Source: Lachnospiraceae bacterium
GTDB taxonomy: Bacteria > Bacillota > Clostridia > Lachnospirales > Lachnospiraceae
Assembly (NCBI GenBank): GCA_017624835.1
Contig: JAGAMG010000016.1
Location: forward strand, 1 to 39,231
Length of the DNA stretch: 39,231 nt
Direction of reading: 5' to 3'
Of the stretch, positions 1 through 8,466 are shown in pieces. Each line of letters opens with the position of its first letter. Position 1 is the stretch's first letter. Both the position numbers and the translations under genes were made by a program. The notes under the pieces were generated by a model. That model saw only the letters and a program-made list of their open reading frames with translations, had not been told where the DNA came from and did not search any database.

Positions 1-113
1 AATTCAAGCAAATTCACATGACAAGATGGTGCATTAACATATGGATTTGGCTGTTCAAAGTAGCTTTGTGCCGGAACCTGATTTTCCATGAATTTAGGTC
101 TCGTTCCATTCAT
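1..113 (-). CDS. Unidentified protein, N-terminal fragment (cut by window edge)
   Basis: An open frame starts at an ATG at 113 and runs off the left edge of the window. A perfect GGAGGTG Shine-Dalgarno (121-127 on the plus strand) lies 7 bases before the ATG, so I consider it a real start. The visible 37 residues begin MNGTRPKFMENQ and are rich in Asn, Pro and Gln, with no signal peptide or membrane segment. I do not recognise the family. It lies directly downstream of the damaged DUF1016 gene on the same strand, within the mobile region, so it is probably an accessory or element gene. Function unknown. Confidence 0.6.
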   Translation of the reverse strand, partial: MNGTRPKFMENQVPAQSYFEQPNPYVNAPSCHVNLLE

Positions 114-146
114 AGTGATACACCTCCAATAGATTTTTTGCTTGTT

Positions 147-1367
147 TTATTCGTTATCCCAAAACTCACGATAGGAATTTATTTCATAGGCTATCATTTC
201 AGGGTATATTTCGTAATAGTGTTTACAGATCTGTTTAAACAGTTTTAGAATTTCATCGCAACCGCAGAAATCCAACATCCTATCCAGAATATGTTCCACT
301 TCGTCGCTAGAAGCAATTCTACCACACAAATCATATGCAATTGGTTTATATTGAATATATGCCAATTCATTTATATGCTCTATTTGGGCTACCAATTTGC
401 TTAAATCATCATTACCCTTGTTCAAATTATTCCCCTTTTCATGCAACTTCTTAACTTTATCATCCAGAATTGTCAGGTACGTATTTAATTGCCCCAGATA
501 AGCAGGTTTAAACTTTCCGGCTTTCAATTCCACTGCAACAAGACAATTCGACTCACGATTAAAGAAGAGAAGGTCAATATACATTTCTTCCCCCTCTATC
601 TCAATTCTATATTGATTTCCCATAAAAATAAAGTCTGTTCCAAACCTTATTATGAAATCTTTGATATTATTAACTATTTCATTTTCAATTATTCTTTCAT
701 CAATATCATCAAAGGCTTCTCCAAGGTTTTCTGTATTAATGAAGTCAAGTAAATAATTATCTTTAAAGGCCTTCGTTGCTTTTATTGCAAACTGTCTATC
801 AGTAAGTGTATTCGAGAAATTATTTGGAAAACTTTCTCTTTGCTGGTATAGTCCTGATTTAATGTATTCTCGTAAAGTATATTTGTCTCAGGCTCTTGTA
901 GCACATTCATGAATGTAAAATATTCGTTCCTCAATGTTCTTCGTCTTGGACAAAATTTCCATATGATGGGTAAAACCTAAGGATATGAATTCATTCCAAT
1001 TTATTTCGCCAGCCACCGGCTGACGAATTGCCAAAAGAAAGCTTTCTTCATTGACTTCCAAATCGTCAGCCAGTGGCTGACGACTTACATAGGGCTTCCA
1101 TTCTTCATAAAAAAGACGCATATTTTTAATATTAGTTTCCGAAAAGCCTCTCATACCTACCAATTCAGATTTTAATCTATCTGAAATTGTTTTTATTGCA
1201 TCAGTTCCCCAAGTACCATTTCTTGTATTTTCTGATACATATTTACCAATACCATAATACAAAGAAAGCAATTCTGCATTTCCAGCTTTTGCTGCCCGAT
1301 AACGACTTTTTTCAACAGCTTGCTTAATTGCCTTTACAGCGTATTCATATTTGTTAATATCGTTCAT
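147..1367 (-). pseudogene. DUF1016/YhcG-family PD-(D/E)XK nuclease, in-frame stop and chimeric C-terminus
   Basis: Two open segments in one frame together give a YhcG (DUF1016) protein. The N-terminal part is 888-1367 (ATG at 1367 after AGGAAT). The nuclease-like part lies below 888 and contains the family strings YIDLLFF and LVAVELKAGKFKPAYLG, including the D...E-x-K active-site pattern. They are separated only by a TGA at 888-890. Reading resumes in the same frame with DKYTLREYI, where relatives usually have Trp-Asp or similar, so TGG to TGA is the simplest explanation. After ILDDKVKKLHEK the usual family ending (PSIGIILC-like) is missing. It is replaced by about 90 unrelated residues ending EFWDNE, which suggests a deletion-fusion with another gene. 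YhcG proteins are predicted nucleases often found with restriction or mobile genes. An internal restart at 623 could still give a 158-aa protein, but I regard the gene as broken. Confidence 0.75.
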
Positions 1368-1385: not shown

Positions 1386-1934
1386 TTATTGCATTTGTTC
1401 CCACATTCTGCGTATTATTCCATACATAGTGCAATCTTGAAATCCATCTCTTGTTTTATAGTAATGATGTAGAAAACCTTCATAGCACATCCCGACCTTT
1501 TCCATCACTTTTCCGGAAGCAGTGTTTTCTACCGAACTAAATGCATCAATTCGTTCAATATCTGTATTCTGGAACATATAATCAATAACTGCTTTAGCAG
1601 CTTCACTTGTATACCCTTGATTCCACCAGCGGCTTCCAATTTTATAACCTAATTCACCTTTTAAATCATATTCTGAGGTTATAGTGATACCAATCGAACC
1701 AATCATTTCACCATCTTTTAGGTATATTCCCCAGTAGTAAGTGGAATCATCAGGATAGCTATTAATCCATTGGTCAATCATATTCTTTGTAGCATCTATG
1801 GTTTTATGTGCATCCCATCGTAAGAAACGTGTAACTTTATCATCACTTGTCCAATTATCAAACATCATTTCCGCATCGGTATGTTCAAGTCTTCGCAATA
1901 TCATTCGCATAGTTTCTATTCTACATGCTTCAAT
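1386..1934 (-). CDS. GNAT-family N-acetyltransferase (RimJ/RimL-like), probable ATT start
   Basis: This is a RimJ/RimL-type acetyltransferase that would transfer acetyl from acetyl-CoA to a protein N-terminus or small molecule. The fold strings are visible: ILRRLEHTDAEMMF at the N-terminus, GELGYKIGSRWWNQGYTSEA (acetyl-CoA binding region) and ENTASGKVMEKVGM near the C-terminus. The first ATG (1910) lacks a ribosome binding site and would remove part of the first strand. In frame, eight codons upstream, an ATT at 1932-1934 sits 6 bases after a perfect AGGAGGA (1941-1947). It gives the expected leader IEACRIETMRMILRR, which matches the family's usual IETERLILRR start. I therefore chose the ATT. 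The alternative is that an ancestral ATG was lost and the gene is poorly expressed. The substrate is unknown; it is likely cargo of the mobile region. Confidence 0.8.
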   Translation of the reverse strand: MEACRIETMRMILRRLEHTDAEMMFDNWTSDDKVTRFLRWDAHKTIDATKNMIDQWINSYPDDSTYYWGIYLKDGEMIGSIGITITSEYDLKGELGYKIGSRWWNQGYTSEAAKAVIDYMFQNTDIERIDAFSSVENTASGKVMEKVGMCYEGFLHHYYKTRDGFQDCTMYGIIRRMWEQMQ

Positions 1935-3975: not shown

Positions 3976-3989
3976 CATATGCGCATATG
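3976..3989. other. 14-bp perfect palindrome before the mobilization genes (possible oriT or operator)
   Basis: CATATGCGCATATG is a perfect palindrome about 50 bases upstream of the first plus-strand gene. The 100 bases around it also contain CAGC-aaaa-c-GCTG (3962-3974). MobV relaxases nick an oriT that usually lies just upstream of the mob genes, so this is a candidate, but I see no match to a known nick sequence. Confidence 0.3.
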
Positions 3990-4042
3990 GGTAACTCGTA
4001 AACGGTCAATCTATGACTCACAGAAAGAAGGAGGAACCCGAT

Positions 4043-4141
4043 TTGGAAAAAGAAATCACAGAAATGTTATTAAGGAATCATCCCTTGAATTACATCCCTC
4101 TGTTGCAGACAGCAGAGAATTGGCAAAGCGATACGAACTGA
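4043..4141 (+). CDS. Small leader protein of the mobilization operon (32 aa)
   Basis: A TTG at 4043 follows AAGAAGGAGG with 8 bases spacing. It opens a 32-codon frame beginning MEKEITEMLLRNHP and ending at a TGA whose last base is the A of the next gene's ATG (TGATG at 4139-4143), so translation is probably coupled. An in-frame ATG at 4013 is possible but has no ribosome binding site. No family recognised. The longer frame that overlaps it (from 3979) reads as the N-terminus of the CHC2 gene but is out of phase with this ribosome binding site, so I do not use it. Confidence 0.6.
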   Translation: MEKEITEMLLRNHPLNYIPLLQTAENWQSDTN

Positions 4142-4776
4142 TGTCAATATTCAGTGAAGTCAAACAACGTCTGCCAATGAAAGAGGTTGCAAGGTACTAT
4201 GGGATAACTGTCAACCGGTCAGGCTTTACAAAGTGTCCGTTCCACAAGGAGCGGACACCCAGTATGAAGATATATGATGACCATTTTTACTGCTTTAGCT
4301 GTCAATGTGGTGGAGATGTCATAAGGCTGGTTAGTCAGTTGTTTTCCTTAACTCCCTTGGAAGCAGCCAAGAAGCTACAGACTGACTTTGGAATTGCAGA
4401 TGTGGAATTTGATAAGGAGAGCTACAAAAAGGAATGTAATACCCGCATGAAACAGCTTCTTAAGGAAAAGCAGTTTGAAAGCTGGAAGCACAACACCTAT
4501 CTGCTCCTCGCAGATTATTGCTCAATGCTTCGAAAATGGCGTGAAGCATTCGCACCAAAGACTTTGGATGAACCATTAAAGGATGAATATGTAGAGAGTC
4601 TACAGGAGCTTGAAAAAATGGAATATTATTGTGACCTGTTCCTCTATGGAATAAGGGCTGATTTAGAAGATTTTAGACAGAATGAAGAAAGACTGGTGAG
4701 CAGGATTGAACAACGTGTCAGGGAACAGAAACAAAGGGATGCAAGGGAGCGTTGCCCCACACTTTACAGGATGTGA
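4141..4776 (+). CDS. CHC2 zinc-finger (DnaG-type primase N-domain) protein
   Basis: A 211-aa protein whose first 90 residues are a CHC2 zinc-binding domain like that of DnaG primase. The ligands are visible in CPFHKERTPSMKIYDDHFYC and FSCQCGGDVI (Cys, His, Cys, Cys). The rest is a helical, charged region with no TOPRIM catalytic domain, so it is not a complete primase. Such short CHC2 proteins are common in Clostridia mobilizable elements next to a Mob relaxase, and may help prime the transferred strand (inference). The start at 4141 is set by the TGATG coupling with the small upstream ORF. The stop codon abuts the relaxase ATG. Confidence 0.8.
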   Translation: MSIFSEVKQRLPMKEVARYYGITVNRSGFTKCPFHKERTPSMKIYDDHFYCFSCQCGGDVIRLVSQLFSLTPLEAAKKLQTDFGIADVEFDKESYKKECNTRMKQLLKEKQFESWKHNTYLLLADYCSMLRKWREAFAPKTLDEPLKDEYVESLQELEKMEYYCDLFLYGIRADLEDFRQNEERLVSRIEQRVREQKQRDARERCPTLYRM

Positions 4777-5628
4777 ATGGCAAAATTAGTTTGTCATGGC
4801 GAGAAATATACAAAGGGTGCTATCGCAAAGATTGAGCGGCATAACGAACGACAAAACGAGCATTACGGCAATCAGGATATTGATTTGGAGCGTAGTCATT
4901 TGAATTACAGATTGATGGAATGCGCGGAAAAGAATTACTTTGCGGCTGTAATGAAGCTGGTGGATGCCAGAAACAATCCTACCGGAAAGAAGCTTCGCAA
5001 GGATGCTATTGTATTAACAGAATTTATCATATCATCCAGCAATGAGTTTTTTGATACCTTATCACCGGAGAGACAAAGGGAATATTTTCAGTCTTCCATG
5101 GAGTATTTGGAGTCTCTCTTTGGTAAGAAAAATACAATTTATGCCGTAGTCCATAATGATGAGCATACACCACATATGCACTTTGGATTTGTACCTATGA
5201 CGGAGGATAATCGTGTCTGTGCCAAAGAGGTCATAAACCGTAATATTCTTCGTCAGATACAGGAGGAACTGCCAAAGCATTTGCAGAAAGCCGGATTTGA
5301 TATTGAGCGTGGAGAAGTAAATTCTGAAGCAGTTCACCGCACAGTAAAGCAGTATAAGGCTGATATGGAGAAGGAAAAAGCAGAGCTTGCCACGGTTATT
5401 CAAGAACAGAAACAGGAGCTACAAGTAATTGCTGAGAAAAAGACGGATATCCGTTCCGTGGAAGAAATAGCAACCGGAAAAACATTACTTGGTGGCAAGG
5501 TAACTGTGGAGGAAGCCGATTATCAGAAACTTACTGATTTGGCAAAGAAGCAGATTGTGGGAGAAAGCAAAGAAAAGAAACTTAAGAGAGAAAATGCTAT
5601 TCTGCGTAAAGAAAATCAGCAATTATAA
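4777..5628 (+). CDS. MobV/Pre-family relaxase (plasmid recombination enzyme), C-terminally truncated
   Basis: A relaxase of the MobV (Pre/Mob) family, which nicks oriT and leads the DNA strand in mobilization; the Tn4451 homologue is TnpZ. The N-terminal RHNERQNEHYGN motif and the metal-binding HNDEHTPHMHFGFVPM motif (HxDExxPHxH) are intact. The C-terminal third is coiled-coil rich. The frame stops at TAA (5626-5628) in the middle of the coiled coil, yet the same frame continues open for 64 more codons to 5823 with coiled-coil sequence typical of the family, so this TAA is a probable nonsense mutation of a Lys or Gln codon. The catalytic domain is unaffected and may still nick DNA. It starts directly after the CHC2 stop. 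Confidence 0.8.
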   Translation: MAKLVCHGEKYTKGAIAKIERHNERQNEHYGNQDIDLERSHLNYRLMECAEKNYFAAVMKLVDARNNPTGKKLRKDAIVLTEFIISSSNEFFDTLSPERQREYFQSSMEYLESLFGKKNTIYAVVHNDEHTPHMHFGFVPMTEDNRVCAKEVINRNILRQIQEELPKHLQKAGFDIERGEVNSEAVHRTVKQYKADMEKEKAELATVIQEQKQELQVIAEKKTDIRSVEEIATGKTLLGGKVTVEEADYQKLTDLAKKQIVGESKEKKLKRENAILRKENQQL

Positions 5629-5823
5629 GCATCCAATGAAGCCCTAAGCTCCCAGCTTACCTGTGAACAGTCTATGAGTAGACGGCTTTCCTTAAAGAAG
5701 CTGGAAGCAGAGGTTCATGAGCTTCGTAAGTTCAAGCAAATGGCAGAAAAGTTTCTTGCAGAGCGTGATTTAAAGGATTATTTCAGAAAAGCATTCATAC
5801 ATTCTAATAATCAGGAACTTTAG
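5629..5823 (+). pseudogene. Detached C-terminal tail of the MobV relaxase
   Basis: In the same frame as the relaxase, beyond its TAA, 64 codons remain open to a TAG at 5821-5823. They encode ASNEALSSQLTC..., then LEAEVHELRKFKQMAEKFL and DYFRKAF, a coiled coil of the kind that ends intact MobV proteins. There is no ribosome binding site of its own at the internal ATGs, so it is probably untranslated apart from readthrough. Confidence 0.7.
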
Positions 5824-5877
5824 GAGTAAATGGTGCTTGAAACAGATAAAAACAGTCTTACAGAAAAGGAGAAATTG

Positions 5878-6012
5878 ATGAATATAACACTTGATGCAAC
5901 ACAGCAAAAGGAATTAAAAAAAACGCTGAAATGCGGAATTTATAAGGAATTACATAAACGGGATGTTTTGACAGATGCGCAACTAAATAGCTTACTTGAA
6001 CGTAATTCTTAG
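5878..6012 (+). CDS. Small helical protein upstream of the recombinase (44 aa), possible TnpW-like or directionality factor
   Basis: The ATG at 5878 has AAAAGGAG with 6-7 bases spacing. It gives a 44-aa protein beginning MNITLDATQQKELKK and ending TDAQLNSLLERNS; an earlier in-frame ATG (5830) lacks such a site. The C-terminal half (YKELHKRDVLTDAQLNSLL) resembles short SHOCT-like helical hairpins. Small proteins of this kind commonly precede the recombinase in Clostridia elements. Large serine integrases need a recombination directionality factor for excision, and this is the best candidate visible, but that is inference from position and size. Confidence 0.55.
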   Translation: MNITLDATQQKELKKTLKCGIYKELHKRDVLTDAQLNSLLERNS

Positions 6013-6020
6013 GAAATTAC

Positions 6021-6049
6021 TTGCACATCATCATTTGCATTGTTATACT
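6021..6049 (+). promoter_or_regulatory. Promoter of the serine recombinase gene
   Basis: TTGCAC (6021-6026), exactly 17 bases, TATACT (6044-6049). It lies just after the stop of the 44-aa ORF and about 45 bases before the recombinase start, so the recombinase can be expressed independently of the mob operon. Confidence 0.75.
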
Positions 6050-6092
6050 GTAGGTGGTGATGTGTCAGCCTAACAAAAGGAGGACACATAAA

Positions 6093-7715
6093 TTGAATAC
6101 AAAAAGTAAACTTAGAGTTGCCGCATATTGCAGAGTTTCTACCGACAAGGATGACCAGACCAATTCCTTAATCAGCCAGCGCAAATACTTTGCAGATTAT
6201 ATTACACACCATGTGGATTGGTCTTTGATGGATGTGTATTATGATGAGGGTATCAGCGGTACGCAGACCAAGAATCGTGCCGGATTTAATGCCATGATTG
6301 AAGATGCTATGCGAGGTGAAATTGACCTTATTCTAACCAAGGAAGTATGTCGATTTGCAAGAAACACGGTGGATACCCTGTCCTACACCCGAAAGCTAAA
6401 GGATAACGGTGTTGGTGTGATTTTTACTATTGATAACATTGACACCAGGGATTCGGATGGCGAGCTTCGTCTGACCATTATGGCGAGTATCGCACAGGAA
6501 GAAAGTCGTAAGACATCGGAGCGTGTGAAGTGGGGACAGAAACGCCGGATGGAGCAAGGTATTGTCTTTGGTAGGGATTTGATTGGTTATACTGTCCGTG
6601 ATGGTGAGCTTGCAATCAACGAGGAAGAAGTACCTATCGTCCGTGCAATTTTTCACAAATATACCAACGAGGGAAAAGGTACTCATGTGATTGCAAGGGA
6701 ATTGTCAGAGGAAGGCTTACGTCCTAAGAGAGTTAAGCTATGGTCTGCTACCGTTATTCTCAGGGCATTACGAAACGAGAAATATGTGGGTGACTTGTGT
6801 CAGAAGAAAACCTTTACACCCAACTATCTGACACATGCAAAGAAGTACAATCGAGGGAATGAAGAAATGGTTTATTTGAAAGACCACCACGAGCCTATCA
6901 TTGATAGGGATTTGTGGAACCGGACACAGGAGGAATTACTCCGACGTGCTCCTACGGAAGAAATGAAATCCAAGCACAGCAACCGCTATTGGTGCAGTGG
7001 CAAACTCTACTGTGGTATGTGCGGTCAGCGGTATGTCAGCCGTACCAAGAAGCTGAAAAATGGCACTACCTACAAGGCATGGCGTTGCTATGAGGCGGCA
7101 AACCACGGAGCCCGTAAGGTATCTGAGGATGGTGAAGTGATTGGCTGTGACAACGGTTCAATCAATGAGCGAGCATTGCTTACCTGTGTACATTATTGTA
7201 TCTGCCAGTTACAGACCAATCAGAAGGAACTAAAGAAGGAAATCCTGCAGGAAATCAAGGCGCTTAAAGGTATCACAGAGAAAAAACTTGATACAAAGCG
7301 TATTACAGAGAAAATGGAAAATCTGAATGCTAAGAAGCGTAAAGCCATTGATTTGATGCTGGATGGATTGATTTCTAAGGCTGATTTACAGGAGCAGACA
7401 AAATGGTACGATGAACAGCTTGTAGAGCTTTCAGAACTGCTTGCCAGTGCACAGAGCAATGATAAAGCACAATCAAAGCAGATTGATGTATTTGAGCAGT
7501 ATATCACTGCTTTGGACGAGATTATGACCTTTGATGAGAACAACGAAAGTCTGTATCGTGAGATACTGGATAAAATGGTTATTTACCACGACAACACTGT
7601 AGAAGTCTGGCTGAAATGCGTTCCCTTCGGCATGAAGTTGACTATTCATTCCTATGGTAAGAATGAGGACTATACAACGGACATTCTTAGCATGGAGGTT
7701 ATTGAAAAATCTTAA
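6093..7715 (+). CDS. Large serine recombinase (TnpX-like)
   Basis: A 540-aa serine recombinase that would integrate and excise the element by site-specific recombination. The N-terminal resolvase domain (residues about 8-150) has the catalytic Ser in AAYCRVSTDKDDQ (Ser16) and the conserved Arg-rich VCRFARNTVD and ASIAQEESRKTSERVKWG strings. A Recombinase (PF07508-type) domain follows. Next is a zinc ribbon (CSGKLYCGMCGQRY ... RCYEAANHG), then a long coiled coil (residues about 390-470) typical of large serine integrases. I chose the TTG at 6093, 9 bases after AAAAGGAGG, over the GTG/ATG codons at 6054-6062, which lack a site. No frameshift or stop is visible, so the enzyme is probably active. 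It ends about 70 bases from the cotJC junction, the usual place for such a gene. Confidence 0.9.
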   Translation: MNTKSKLRVAAYCRVSTDKDDQTNSLISQRKYFADYITHHVDWSLMDVYYDEGISGTQTKNRAGFNAMIEDAMRGEIDLILTKEVCRFARNTVDTLSYTRKLKDNGVGVIFTIDNIDTRDSDGELRLTIMASIAQEESRKTSERVKWGQKRRMEQGIVFGRDLIGYTVRDGELAINEEEVPIVRAIFHKYTNEGKGTHVIARELSEEGLRPKRVKLWSATVILRALRNEKYVGDLCQKKTFTPNYLTHAKKYNRGNEEMVYLKDHHEPIIDRDLWNRTQEELLRRAPTEEMKSKHSNRYWCSGKLYCGMCGQRYVSRTKKLKNGTTYKAWRCYEAANHGARKVSEDGEVIGCDNGSINERALLTCVHYCICQLQTNQKELKKEILQEIKALKGITEKKLDTKRITEKMENLNAKKRKAIDLMLDGLISKADLQEQTKWYDEQLVELSELLASAQSNDKAQSKQIDVFEQYITALDEIMTFDENNESLYREILDKMVIYHDNTVEVWLKCVPFGMKLTIHSYGKNEDYTTDILSMEVIEKS

Positions 7716-7716
7716 A

Positions 7717-7742
7717 GCTCCGGAAACCGAAACTTCCGGAGC
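7717..7742 (+). terminator. Hairpin after the recombinase gene
   Basis: GCTCCGGAA (7717-7725) and TTCCGGAGC (7734-7742) form a perfect 9-bp stem with an 8-base loop, starting 2 bases after the recombinase stop. The following bases are only moderately T-rich, so termination may be partial. It would also act on transcripts of the truncated cotJC coming from the other strand. Confidence 0.6.
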
Positions 7743-7779
7743 ATCTACTTAAATCTAAGATGTGCAATTTTAGTACCGA

Positions 7780-7792
7780 TACACCGATATCT
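7780..7792. other. Element-chromosome junction inside cotJC (attachment site half)
   Basis: On the minus strand cotJC homology runs through LLTDIG and stops at about 7783. Intact CotJC proteins continue TEE(L/F)AHLEM, whereas here the frame reads VSVLKLHIL and then enters the recombinase end. The exact crossover cannot be fixed without the other half. A GA dinucleotide at 7786-7787 would suit a TnpX-type enzyme, whose targets share GA at the crossover (family knowledge). Confidence 0.65.
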
Positions 7793-7968
7793 GTCAAAAG
7801 TCCTGCAACCTCTCGATAAGGCATGGAATATCTCTGGGATAGATAACGCATACTTGCTGCCAATTCACCATCAGGTCCACCAAACTGGGAAATAATAACC
7901 TGTGCCAGCTTTGCATTGGGCTCTTTGATTTTTACAGGAAACTGTAATCTTTTTTCATAACTCCACAT

Positions 7969-8229
7969 TTAGCTACACACTCCTTCCATCTCCCATGGCA
8001 ATGGTGCTGTGCCCCATTTCCACTCCTTGTTACTTTCAGCCAAATTCTTTGTCAAAGGAAAATATTTCTGTGAAAACTCTTTTTCCATCTGATTTTTAAT
8101 ACGGGCATAATGGTTATAATATTCCATTGCGGTTTTATCAAAGGGATGGGTATCCAGATAAAGCATAAGCTCAATCATTGTAAAATCCACCATGCCAATA
8201 TCCATCAGCAAACGCTCCTGTTGATTCAT
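7969..8229 (-). CDS. cotJB: CotJB spore coat-associated protein
   Basis: An 86-aa CotJB. The family strings LMDIGMVDFTMIELMLYLDT and the C-terminal WKWGTAPLPWEMEGVC are clear. In Bacillus subtilis the cotJABC products enter the inner spore coat and are made in the mother cell. The ATG at 8229 overlaps the cotJA stop by one base (TAATG) and has AAGGAG 9-10 bases upstream; the ATG at 8238 sits too close to that site. The length is normal for the family. It is followed without gap by the interrupted cotJC. Confidence 0.9.
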   Translation of the reverse strand: MNQQERLLMDIGMVDFTMIELMLYLDTHPFDKTAMEYYNHYARIKNQMEKEFSQKYFPLTKNLAESNKEWKWGTAPLPWEMEGVCS

Positions 8230-8396
8230 TATACGCATCTCCTTCCTGTGAAAGGTTTATTCAATTCGGGAAAAACAGTGCCGCATTTGTATGCTTTTTC
8301 CAAATCATCGTACATTCTGTCAAAGTGCTGCCATGGTACATATGCCATAGCAATAGGATATTTATCAAAATGCTCATCAAATGAATAATTCTGCAT
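8229..8396 (-). CDS. cotJA: CotJA spore coat-associated protein
   Basis: A 55-aa protein beginning MQNYSFDEHFDKYPIAMAYV and containing PWQHFDRMYDDLEKAY, the CotJA signature (small, with AMAYVPWQ and a C-terminal PELNKPF). It is the first gene of the cotJABC operon. AAAGGA precedes the ATG at 8396. It overlaps cotJB by one base. CotJA is needed for CotJC assembly into the coat in Bacillus subtilis (family knowledge). Confidence 0.85.
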   Translation of the reverse strand: MQNYSFDEHFDKYPIAMAYVPWQHFDRMYDDLEKAYKCGTVFPELNKPFTGRRCV

Positions 8397-8433
8397 ATGA
8401 TTCCTTTCATATTTCTTTATTCTCTTTAATAAT

Positions 8434-8441
8434 ATAGTATG
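8434..8441 (-). promoter_or_regulatory. Possible SigE -10 element of the cotJ operon
   Basis: CATACTAT on the minus strand, 38 bases before the cotJA start, resembles the SigE -10 consensus CATACAnT. No good SigE -35 is seen 13-15 bases upstream. cotJ is SigE-dependent in Bacillus subtilis, which is the main support. Confidence 0.35.
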
Positions 8442-8466
8442 AAAATTATTGCTTTGTGTGAAAACA

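What the first reader, a model, noticed from the sequence alone, without database searches (positions are those of the whole stretch)
7699..8396. cotJC interrupted by a serine-recombinase element: possible sporulation-controlled excision
cotJA and cotJB are intact, and cotJC reads normally for 62 codons, then switches at LLTDIG to element sequence about 70 bases from an intact large serine recombinase. In known cases (sigK with skin, spsM with SPbeta) such elements are excised in the mother cell to rebuild a sporulation gene. A mobilizable Tn4451-like element doing this in cotJC would be a new case, or it is simple inactivation. The recombinase has its own promoter and no stop or frameshift.
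Basis: partly seen in the sequence, partly recalled or inferred. Interest (0 to 1): 0.82.

Follow-up and report, generated by a model that had tools for sequence, protein, structure and literature searches.

The report
Spore-coat gene split by mobile elements
A gut bacterium's spore-coat gene is cut in two by a mobile DNA element that looks able to cut itself out exactly and restore the gene, and the same gene is split this way, at a few recurring places, in many related bacteria, though nobody has yet shown the cut-out happening.

Summary
cotJA and cotJB are intact; cotJC reads for 62 codons (7968-7783, minus strand), then enters an element whose intact large serine recombinase (LSR, 6054-7715) ends about 68 bases away. 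The window is a whole contig that stops about 190 bases short of the element's other end, judging by a relative (L094, LSR 87% identical). The 3' half was not found in the assembly, which also holds an intact cotJC paralogue.

This is not a one-off. Of 396 sampled family genomes, 250 have cotJC. Of 80 weak-scoring ones re-examined, 78 have no full-length match and 56 show both sides of a split at codons ~30, 62 or 135, beside metal-ligand motifs. All 34 same-contig piece pairs are collinear (gaps 1.6-53 kb); all 24 loci holding both junctions carry an LSR; LSRs sort by site. A core repeat of 6 nt or more lies in gene register in 25 of 39 pairs (1.0% in other registers), so precise excision would restore cotJC.

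Best reading: sporulation-gene intervening elements of the skin/SPbeta kind, on a new target and scale. Excision and its timing are not shown: no mother-cell promoter enrichment was found, and three elements have truncated LSRs.

The parts
7783..7968 (-). 5' part of cotJC, codons 1-62 (MWSYEK...LLTDIG)
   Evidence: PF05067 profile 1-64; tblastn 94% to intact G030 copy
7699..7968 (-). fused open frame: cotJC 5' part plus element sequence to first stop
   Evidence: ORF list
7756..7812 (-). attachment junction (attL-like): cotJC ...ACAGATATCGGT then arm GTATCGGTACTAAAATTGCACATCT; core about GGT(A)
   Evidence: same arm at the junction in L032 and L094; limits of the site are my estimate
7969..8238 (-). 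cotJB, intact
   Evidence: PF12652 match 7990-8214; ORF
8229..8396 (-). cotJA, intact, 55 aa
   Evidence: translation; named from sequence resemblance, no family search
8432..8461 (-). cotJ promoter-like site TCACACA-N13-CATACTATAT, like those before cotJA in relatives
   Evidence: model trained on these sites, so circular; coordinates worked out
6054..7715 (+). large serine recombinase, 553 aa as an ORF (true start may be the TTG near 6094)
   Evidence: PF00239, PF07508, PF13408 all over cut-off; 81% to L032 LSR, 87% to L094 LSR
6022..6049 (+). sigma-70-like promoter before the recombinase
   Evidence: consensus match only
5830..6012 (+). small ORF, 60 aa (...GIYKELHKRDVLTDAQLNSLLERNS); candidate directionality factor, inferred from position and conservation only
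   Evidence: a related motif in an open frame directly upstream of the LSR in 15 of 16 class-62A elements (not in L106); no Pfam or NCBIfam match
4777..5628 (+). Mob_Pre relaxase, catalytic part; a stop codon ends this frame and the frame goes on open to 5823
   Evidence: PF01076 E 3e-60; translation
3979..4776 (+). CHC2 zinc-finger (primase-like) protein
   Evidence: PF01807
2971..3813 (-). HTH (XRE-type) regulator
   Evidence: PF01381
2463..2930 (-). cargo: DUF3795 protein
   Evidence: PF12675
2022..2411 (-). cargo: hypothetical protein, 129 aa
   Evidence: ORF list
1386..1910 (-). cargo: GNAT acetyltransferase
   Evidence: PF13302
888..1367 (-). cargo: DUF1016 N-terminal part of a YhcG-type protein (separate frame from its C-terminal part)
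   Evidence: PF17761
147..623 (-). cargo: YhcG C-terminal nuclease part
   Evidence: PF06250
1..146 (-). start of an ORF (MNGTRPKFMENQ...), the outermost part of the element in the window
   Evidence: window 4-146 is 89% identical to L094:802-944, about 190 bases from the 3' half of cotJC in L094

Best explanation
The window holds one junction of an element of about 8 kb that a large serine recombinase placed in codon 62 of cotJC. The element is one of a large set: several LSR lineages each recognise a different short, very conserved stretch of cotJC (beside the di-manganese ligand motifs at codons ~30, 62, 135 and probably 177). Recombination of the two junctions by the element's own LSR would release a circle and rejoin cotJC exactly and in frame. 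Because cotJC is a spore-coat gene needed only in the mother cell (recalled), insertion costs nothing in growth; the element survives in the forespore chromosome, and cells that rebuild cotJC in the mother cell make normal spores. Shown: insertion, LSR, collinearity, in-register core repeats in relatives, recurrence, site-specific LSR clades, mostly open reading frames of the halves. Inferred: that excision happens and that it occurs in the sporulating mother cell. For the window copy, presence of the 3' half is inferred from L094 and L032.
For: Junction and intact LSR. The same element type with both halves on one contig: L032 (2.9 kb, core ACCGACATTGGT) and L094 (4.2 kb); the window's outer end matches L094 next to its far junction. 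Recurrence: of 80 weak-scoring genomes out of 250 cotJC-positive in a 396-genome sample, 78 have no full-length match and 56 show both sides of a split at codon ~30 (15), ~62 (33) or ~135 (12); 34 of 34 same-contig pairs are collinear on one strand. Core repeats in gene register: 6 nt or more in 25 of 39 pairs against 1.0% of other registers, 4 nt or more in 36 of 39 against 11.5%. 24 of 24 loci holding both junctions carry an LSR in the element. LSRs sort by site: site 30, 10 of 10 in one clade; site 135, 10 of 10 in one clade. Elements of 2.4-3.7 kb keep LSRs of 481-586 aa (L032, L055, L064, L075), and dN/dS is 0.03-0.20 in the 11 of 24 close LSR pairs where dS could be estimated. Found by LSR alone, 43 of 57 genome loci with at least 40% identity, but 1 of 23 below, carry a cotJC piece within the fetched flanks. 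Controls: adk full length in 79 of 80, a sub-threshold match in 1, split in none; cotJB nearly full length in 93 of 93 genomes that have it.
Against: No reads, circle or excised copy was seen. No mother-cell promoter enrichment at the LSRs or in the elements. Three of the 24 both-end elements have clearly truncated LSRs (L054, L060, L065) and two more are short (L059, L074), yet their cotJC halves are still open, so open halves alone do not prove excision. dN/dS of the halves (medians 0.055 for 10 C pieces, 0.063 for 21 N pieces) rests on near-saturated dS and partly predates insertion. The window genome and Lactonifactor longoviformis also have an intact cotJC paralogue, so loss there could be tolerated. 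22 of the 80 genomes show only one side or other partial matches, so they are not proven splits. The window's 3' half was not found.
Confidence: 0.66

Rival explanations
1. Integration hotspot with plain inactivation. LSR elements use the most conserved DNA of cotJC as attB because it is widespread; cotJC is dispensable or backed up by a paralogue, and the element leaves only rarely, as any mobile element does, with no developmental role.
For: Attachment sites coincide with the most conserved DNA of the gene (p 0.0046 in a placement test). Intact paralogues exist in G000 and L. longoviformis. Truncated LSRs exist in L054, L060, L065. No mother-cell promoter enrichment. Some close LSRs lie in different genera (L035/L061 92%, L076/L086 94% identical), so some elements moved recently.
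Against: 78 of the 80 re-examined genomes have no full-length match, yet of 172 pieces examined only L101 is clearly damaged on inspection. Several elements stripped to little more than an LSR keep it full length.
Confidence: 0.27
2. The halves are used as separate polypeptides: N- and C-parts are translated apart and assemble into a working CotJC, so no excision is needed.
For: Both halves stay open, even where the LSR is truncated. In some loci the C-half frame extends upstream to a start codon (L094).
Against: Cuts fall beside metal-ligand motifs (ligands recalled). C-halves lie 1.6-53 kb from the N-half in the 34 same-contig pairs, and the C-half start in L094 has no evident ribosome site (my reading). 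It does not explain the LSR and attachment arms.
Confidence: 0.04
3. Assembly or binning artefact: contig breaks or chimeric joins make cotJC look split.
For: Most genomes are drafts, and the window contig itself ends inside the element.
Against: Splits on single-contig genomes (G295, G327, G386; G402) and a cultured type strain (L. longoviformis DSM 17459); recurring codons; LSR and arms at the joins; adk unsplit in the same 80 genomes; cotJB unsplit in 93.
Confidence: 0.02

Closest known systems
skin elements in sigK (B. subtilis, C. difficile)
   Same: LSR element in a mother-cell sporulation gene; rejoining restores the frame. Of 50 genomes checked here, 3 show sigK in two collinear pieces and 1 a partial match.
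   Different: Target is cotJC, a coat protein and not a sigma factor; several sites, several LSR lineages, multiple inserts per gene; excision not shown.
SPbeta prophage in spsM (B. subtilis)
   Same: Prophages among the cotJC elements (G177, G386, G097 carry tail or tape-measure genes).
   Different: In SPbeta the directionality factor SprB has mother-cell promoters (passage in PMC6957869); no such control was found here.
vfbin in spoVFB, gin in gerE, yin in yabG
   Same: Intervening elements in sporulation genes (gin: abstract start; all three: passages of PMC10747680).
   Different: Each is reported for one gene; yin in one strain. The cotJC case spans many genera.
fdxN element / XisF of heterocyst-forming cyanobacteria
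   Same: Excision that rejoins an interrupted gene (passage). Window LSR matches the XisF model at E 1.3e-29, far below its cut-off (103.5 of 375 bits).
   Different: Other phylum, gene and development; LSRs only distantly related.
Tn4451/Tn5397-type mobilizable elements (recalled)
   Same: LSR together with a Mob_Pre relaxase.
   Different: Insertion is in a fixed codon of cotJC; no TnpX comparison was made; relaxase frame has a stop.

Membership tests
Sporulation-gene intervening element (skin/SPbeta kind) | Lies inside the coding sequence of a mother-cell sporulation gene | tested here: met
   cotJC 5' part then element; mother-cell expression of the cotJ operon is recalled, not tested
Sporulation-gene intervening element (skin/SPbeta kind) | Carries a site-specific recombinase next to a junction | tested here: met
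   LSR domains intact, stop about 68 bases from the junction
Sporulation-gene intervening element (skin/SPbeta kind) | Core repeat at both ends and frame restored on rejoining | tested here: inconclusive
   In relatives: 6 nt or more in register in 25 of 39 pairs, 4 nt or more in 36 of 39, and L094; the window's other end lies off the contig
Sporulation-gene intervening element (skin/SPbeta kind) | Excision with circle formation | not testable with these tools
   no reads or cultures; no free attP of three tested patterns recognised in 37 viral loci
Sporulation-gene intervening element (skin/SPbeta kind) | Excision timed to sporulation in the mother cell | not testable with these tools
   only a promoter proxy could be tried, and it was negative overall
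Sporulation-gene intervening element (skin/SPbeta kind) | Recombination directionality factor | tested here: inconclusive
   small ORF with a shared motif before the LSR in 15 of 16 class-62A elements; no family match
Tn4451-type mobilizable element | LSR plus Mob_Pre relaxase | tested here: met
   relaxase frame interrupted by a stop
Tn4451-type mobilizable element | LSR is a TnpX homologue | not tested
   no TnpX sequence was fetched
Complete CotJC (Mn catalase family) | Full-length domain with all metal-ligand motifs | tested here: not met
   only profile positions 1-64 of 284; NCBIfam ManCatBAC 33.7 of 350 bits

The most novel reading that the evidence does not exclude
cotJC is a gene in pieces across much of a gut bacterial family: separate LSR lineages have each specialised on one of four metal-ligand motifs, two or three inserts (prophage, mobilizable or minimal) can sit in one gene, and several DNA excisions in each mother cell rebuild it, so that mobile elements act as removable DNA introns of a spore-coat enzyme.
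Probability: 0.5. Interest if true: 0.92.

Novelty: new variant of a known kind. Interest (0 to 1): 0.82.

Why it matters
The sporulation-gene inserts I found in print are single target genes (sigK, spsM, spoVFB, gerE, yabG; passages). Here one coat gene shows both sides of a split in at least 56 of 250 cotJC-positive genomes of a family sample, more often than sigK in the 50 genomes compared (two pieces in 3; those 50 were chosen for split cotJC, so the comparison is rough), at the same few codons by different LSR lineages. If excision is confirmed, it is a natural experiment on why mobile elements settle in mother-cell genes, it supplies many LSRs with readable attB sites, and it means a spore-coat Mn-catalase-like gene is easily missed by annotation in many gut anaerobes. 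It also makes directly testable whether one gene can be rebuilt by two or three excisions in one cell.

Tried and rejected
Assembly artefact: rejected. Linking the window's left end to another contig of the same genome: no second copy of window 1-700 beyond a 37-base match. 3' half in the genome: only the C5 paralogue and a chance-level match. Mother-cell promoter control of the LSR: first a recalled sigma-E consensus on cotJA upstream regions, then a model trained on cotJ promoters; no enrichment overall, although L062, L081 and L097 have sites above 10 bits upstream of the LSR and L056 has 7 hits against 1.7 expected. A conserved DNA stretch before the small ORF (GGATTATTTCAG...CATTCATACATTCTAATAA in window, L032, L094, L099) looked like a promoter but does not fit the learned cotJ model; left open. 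Truncated LSRs completed in the circle: looked for; L054's frame lengthens across the junction (417 codons against 305) but nothing convincing. Free attP in viral contigs: none recognised with three patterns; a free Dorea phage with a 62% identical LSR has a plausible attP, but its match to cotJC is too short to claim. dN/dS on halves: saturated, weak (only the 31 pieces with over 75% identity and dS under 3 were kept).

Counts and their limits: four weak-scoring genomes (G106, G168, G205, G251) were left out for its 80-handle cap, and a few near the cut-off (such as G245) were not picked; the row list was cut, so 56 is a lower bound; 17 of the 80 (full-length ones aside) have a single row there. 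11 listed rows carry a stop inside the match; I checked four genomes (G149, G195, G402, G081): none inside the gene part in G195 and G081, at or before the junction in G149 and G402. The cotJB control is an order-level sample, not the same 80 genomes. In one search three pairs (G262, G177, G295) gave no core at the junction; in the control register 0 was strictly the best in 20 of 39.

Literature: (listings and abstract starts) and passages of PMC10747680, PMC6957869 and PMC10083194 showed no report of an element in cotJC; subscription papers and preprints are not held.
Full report
Observation. The window is the whole of contig C10 of a 2.93 Mb, 55-contig, 84.8% complete genome. On the minus strand, cotJA (8229-8396), cotJB (7969-8238) and the first 62 codons of cotJC (7968-7783) are intact. 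At codon 62 the sequence leaves cotJC and enters an attachment-like arm (GTATCGGTACTAAAATTGCACATCT), and about 68 bases further lies the stop of a convergent, intact 553-aa large serine recombinase. The rest of the contig's left part is element: a small ORF, a Mob_Pre relaxase with an in-frame stop, a CHC2 protein, an HTH regulator and cargo.

The other end. It is not in the window, and a search for the 3' half in the same genome found only an intact paralogue on contig C5, 64% identical, and a chance-level match. Two relatives carry the same element type with both ends on one contig. L032 is a contig of a same-genus genome and corresponds in length and content to the record 'uncultured Acetatifactor sp.' (L095); L094 is a Lachnospiraceae MAG from roe deer. 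Their LSRs are 81% and 87% identical to the window's. In L032 both ends show ACCGACATTGGT in the same codon register, and rejoining there gives LTDIGTEELAHLEM. Window bases 4-146 match L094:944-802 at 89%, about 190 bases from the L094 3' half. So the contig most likely breaks just short of the far junction.

How general it is. PF05067 in 61 genomes (the window's and 60 relatives) already showed cotJC broken at repeating positions. In an evenly drawn family sample of 396 genomes (completeness filter 90), 250 have a match. I re-examined 80 of the weakest-scoring ones: 2 have a full-length copy, 78 have none, and 56 show both sides of at least one split in the listed rows: codon ~30 in 15, ~62 in 33, ~135 in 12. 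G402 adds a 57th from its own locus. Counting any piece end, the sites occur in 30, 43 and 15 genomes, with a possible fourth near codon 177 in 7; nine genomes show ends at two or three of the first three sites, four of them with both sides at two sites. All 34 same-contig neighbouring pairs are collinear on one strand, with gaps of 1.6 to 53 kb. The remaining 22 genomes (G402 among them) show one side or other partial matches in those rows and are not proven splits by them.

Controls. adk is full length in 79 of the same 80 genomes, has only a sub-threshold match in 1 and is split in none. cotJB, next door in the operon, has a nearly full-length match in all 93 of 148 order-level genomes that have it (a different sample). 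sigK, the textbook split gene, is in two collinear pieces in 3 of 50 of the cotJC-split genomes, partial in 1 and near full length in 46. Of 172 cotJC pieces examined, four showed a stop after automatic trimming; by inspection three of these stops lie beyond the junction, and only L101 is clearly damaged, while L103's piece also runs out of frame just after codon ~138.

Anatomy of the elements. In 39 same-genome pairs I compared the two junctions in gene register. A shared run of 6 nt or more lies there in 25 of 39 against 1.0% of other registers, and 4 nt or more in 36 of 39 against 11.5%; G262, G177 and G295 gave none. Several flanking arms are visibly inverted repeats, as expected for serine-integrase sites (my reading). 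All 24 loci that hold both junctions encode an LSR inside the element. Elements range from 1.6-3.7 kb LSR-dominated pieces to 31-39 kb elements with phage tail genes (G177, G386, G097). In a tree of 46 LSRs, all 10 site-30 enzymes form one clade, all 10 site-135 enzymes another, and the 24 site-62 enzymes fall into two large clades plus one outlier. Scanning named genomes and viral contigs with a four-LSR alignment of the window's clade, without using cotJC, kept 95 loci, of which 49 carry cotJC pieces: 43 of 57 genome loci at 40% identity or more, 1 of 23 below, and 5 of 15 viral loci.

Why these codons. The four sites lie in or beside GGPDGE, TEELAH, AAEQKAR and VHFQRFGEA. These are among the most conserved nucleotides of the gene (placement test p 0.0046), and the protein aligns with solved Mn catalases; that these motifs hold the metal ligands is recalled. 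Conserved DNA gives an LSR a target that persists across hosts.

Mechanism and its limits. Rejoining would restore the frame, and related LSRs are under purifying selection (dN/dS 0.03-0.20 in the 11 of 24 pairs above 78% identity where dS could be estimated), including the window-L094 pair (0.058), although L094 lacks a match to the window's relaxase and primase. But I found no excised product, no free attP and no mother-cell promoter enrichment at the LSRs or in the elements. A small ORF with a shared motif lies before the LSR in 15 of 16 class-62A elements (window 5830-6012); it is a candidate directionality factor with no family match. Three both-end elements have truncated LSRs and may be dead. 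The window genome has two near full-length matches to the sigK model (the second is presumably sigE) and an intact cotJC paralogue, so the split copy may be redundant there.

Comparison with known systems. The closest kind is the sporulation-gene intervening element: sigK/skin, spsM/SPbeta, spoVFB/vfbin, gerE/gin and yabG/yin (passages of PMC10747680; passages of PMC6957869). By structure the cotJC elements work like these. Membership is met for location and recombinase, met in relatives for in-frame cores, and untestable for excision and timing. None of my searches (listings) showed a cotJC case.

Verdict. A real and recurrent feature, new in target, multiplicity and scale, with a well-supported structural case for precise gene reconstitution and an unproven developmental trigger.

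Noticed in passing
L107:6886-11869: The element splitting cotJC carries its own complete cotJC, preceded by cotJA- and cotJB-like sequence (my reading), between the two cotJC halves.
   Followed up: partly
L072:2061-6171 (G109): Two tandem copies of the far junction plus the cotJC 3' half, 3.5 kb apart, 96% identical in DNA with the same CotJC protein part; other ORFs lie between them.
   Followed up: partly
G204, G223, G247: sigK found as two collinear pieces about 4-20 kb apart, and a partial sigK in G088: probable skin-like elements in these genomes.
   Followed up: no
window 4777-5823: The Mob_Pre relaxase frame is interrupted by one in-frame stop; the rest of the frame stays open.
   Followed up: no
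window 147-1367: A YhcG/DUF1016-type nuclease gene lies in two separate frames (N-part 888-1367, C-part 147-623), so it looks broken.
   Followed up: no
L233 (MT837874.1), L234 (MT839280.1): Two faecal records deposited as bacteriophage are pieces of split cotJC loci: LSR next to a cotJC 3' half in one and, by my reading of the printed flank, next to cotJC's 5' half in the other.
   Followed up: partly
L235 (Dorea phage DO134P1): A sewage phage of a Dorea host has an LSR 62% identical to a cotJC-site LSR of a 39 kb prophage, and an attP-like inverted repeat beside it.
   Followed up: partly
window 5774-5815 (approximate), L032, L094, L099: A DNA stretch GGATTATTTCAG...CATTCATACATTCTAATAA before the small ORF is conserved even where the relaxase frame is lost.
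   Followed up: partly
L213, L215, L216 (IMG/VR): Viral contigs with only the cotJC middle piece (codons ~63-136) in the fetched stretch, suggesting inserts at both sites 62 and 135.
   Followed up: no
G457 (Eubacterium sp. 14-2), contig C1: cotJC in two collinear pieces 72 kb apart (profile 1-64 and 62-190), with no full-length match.
   Followed up: no
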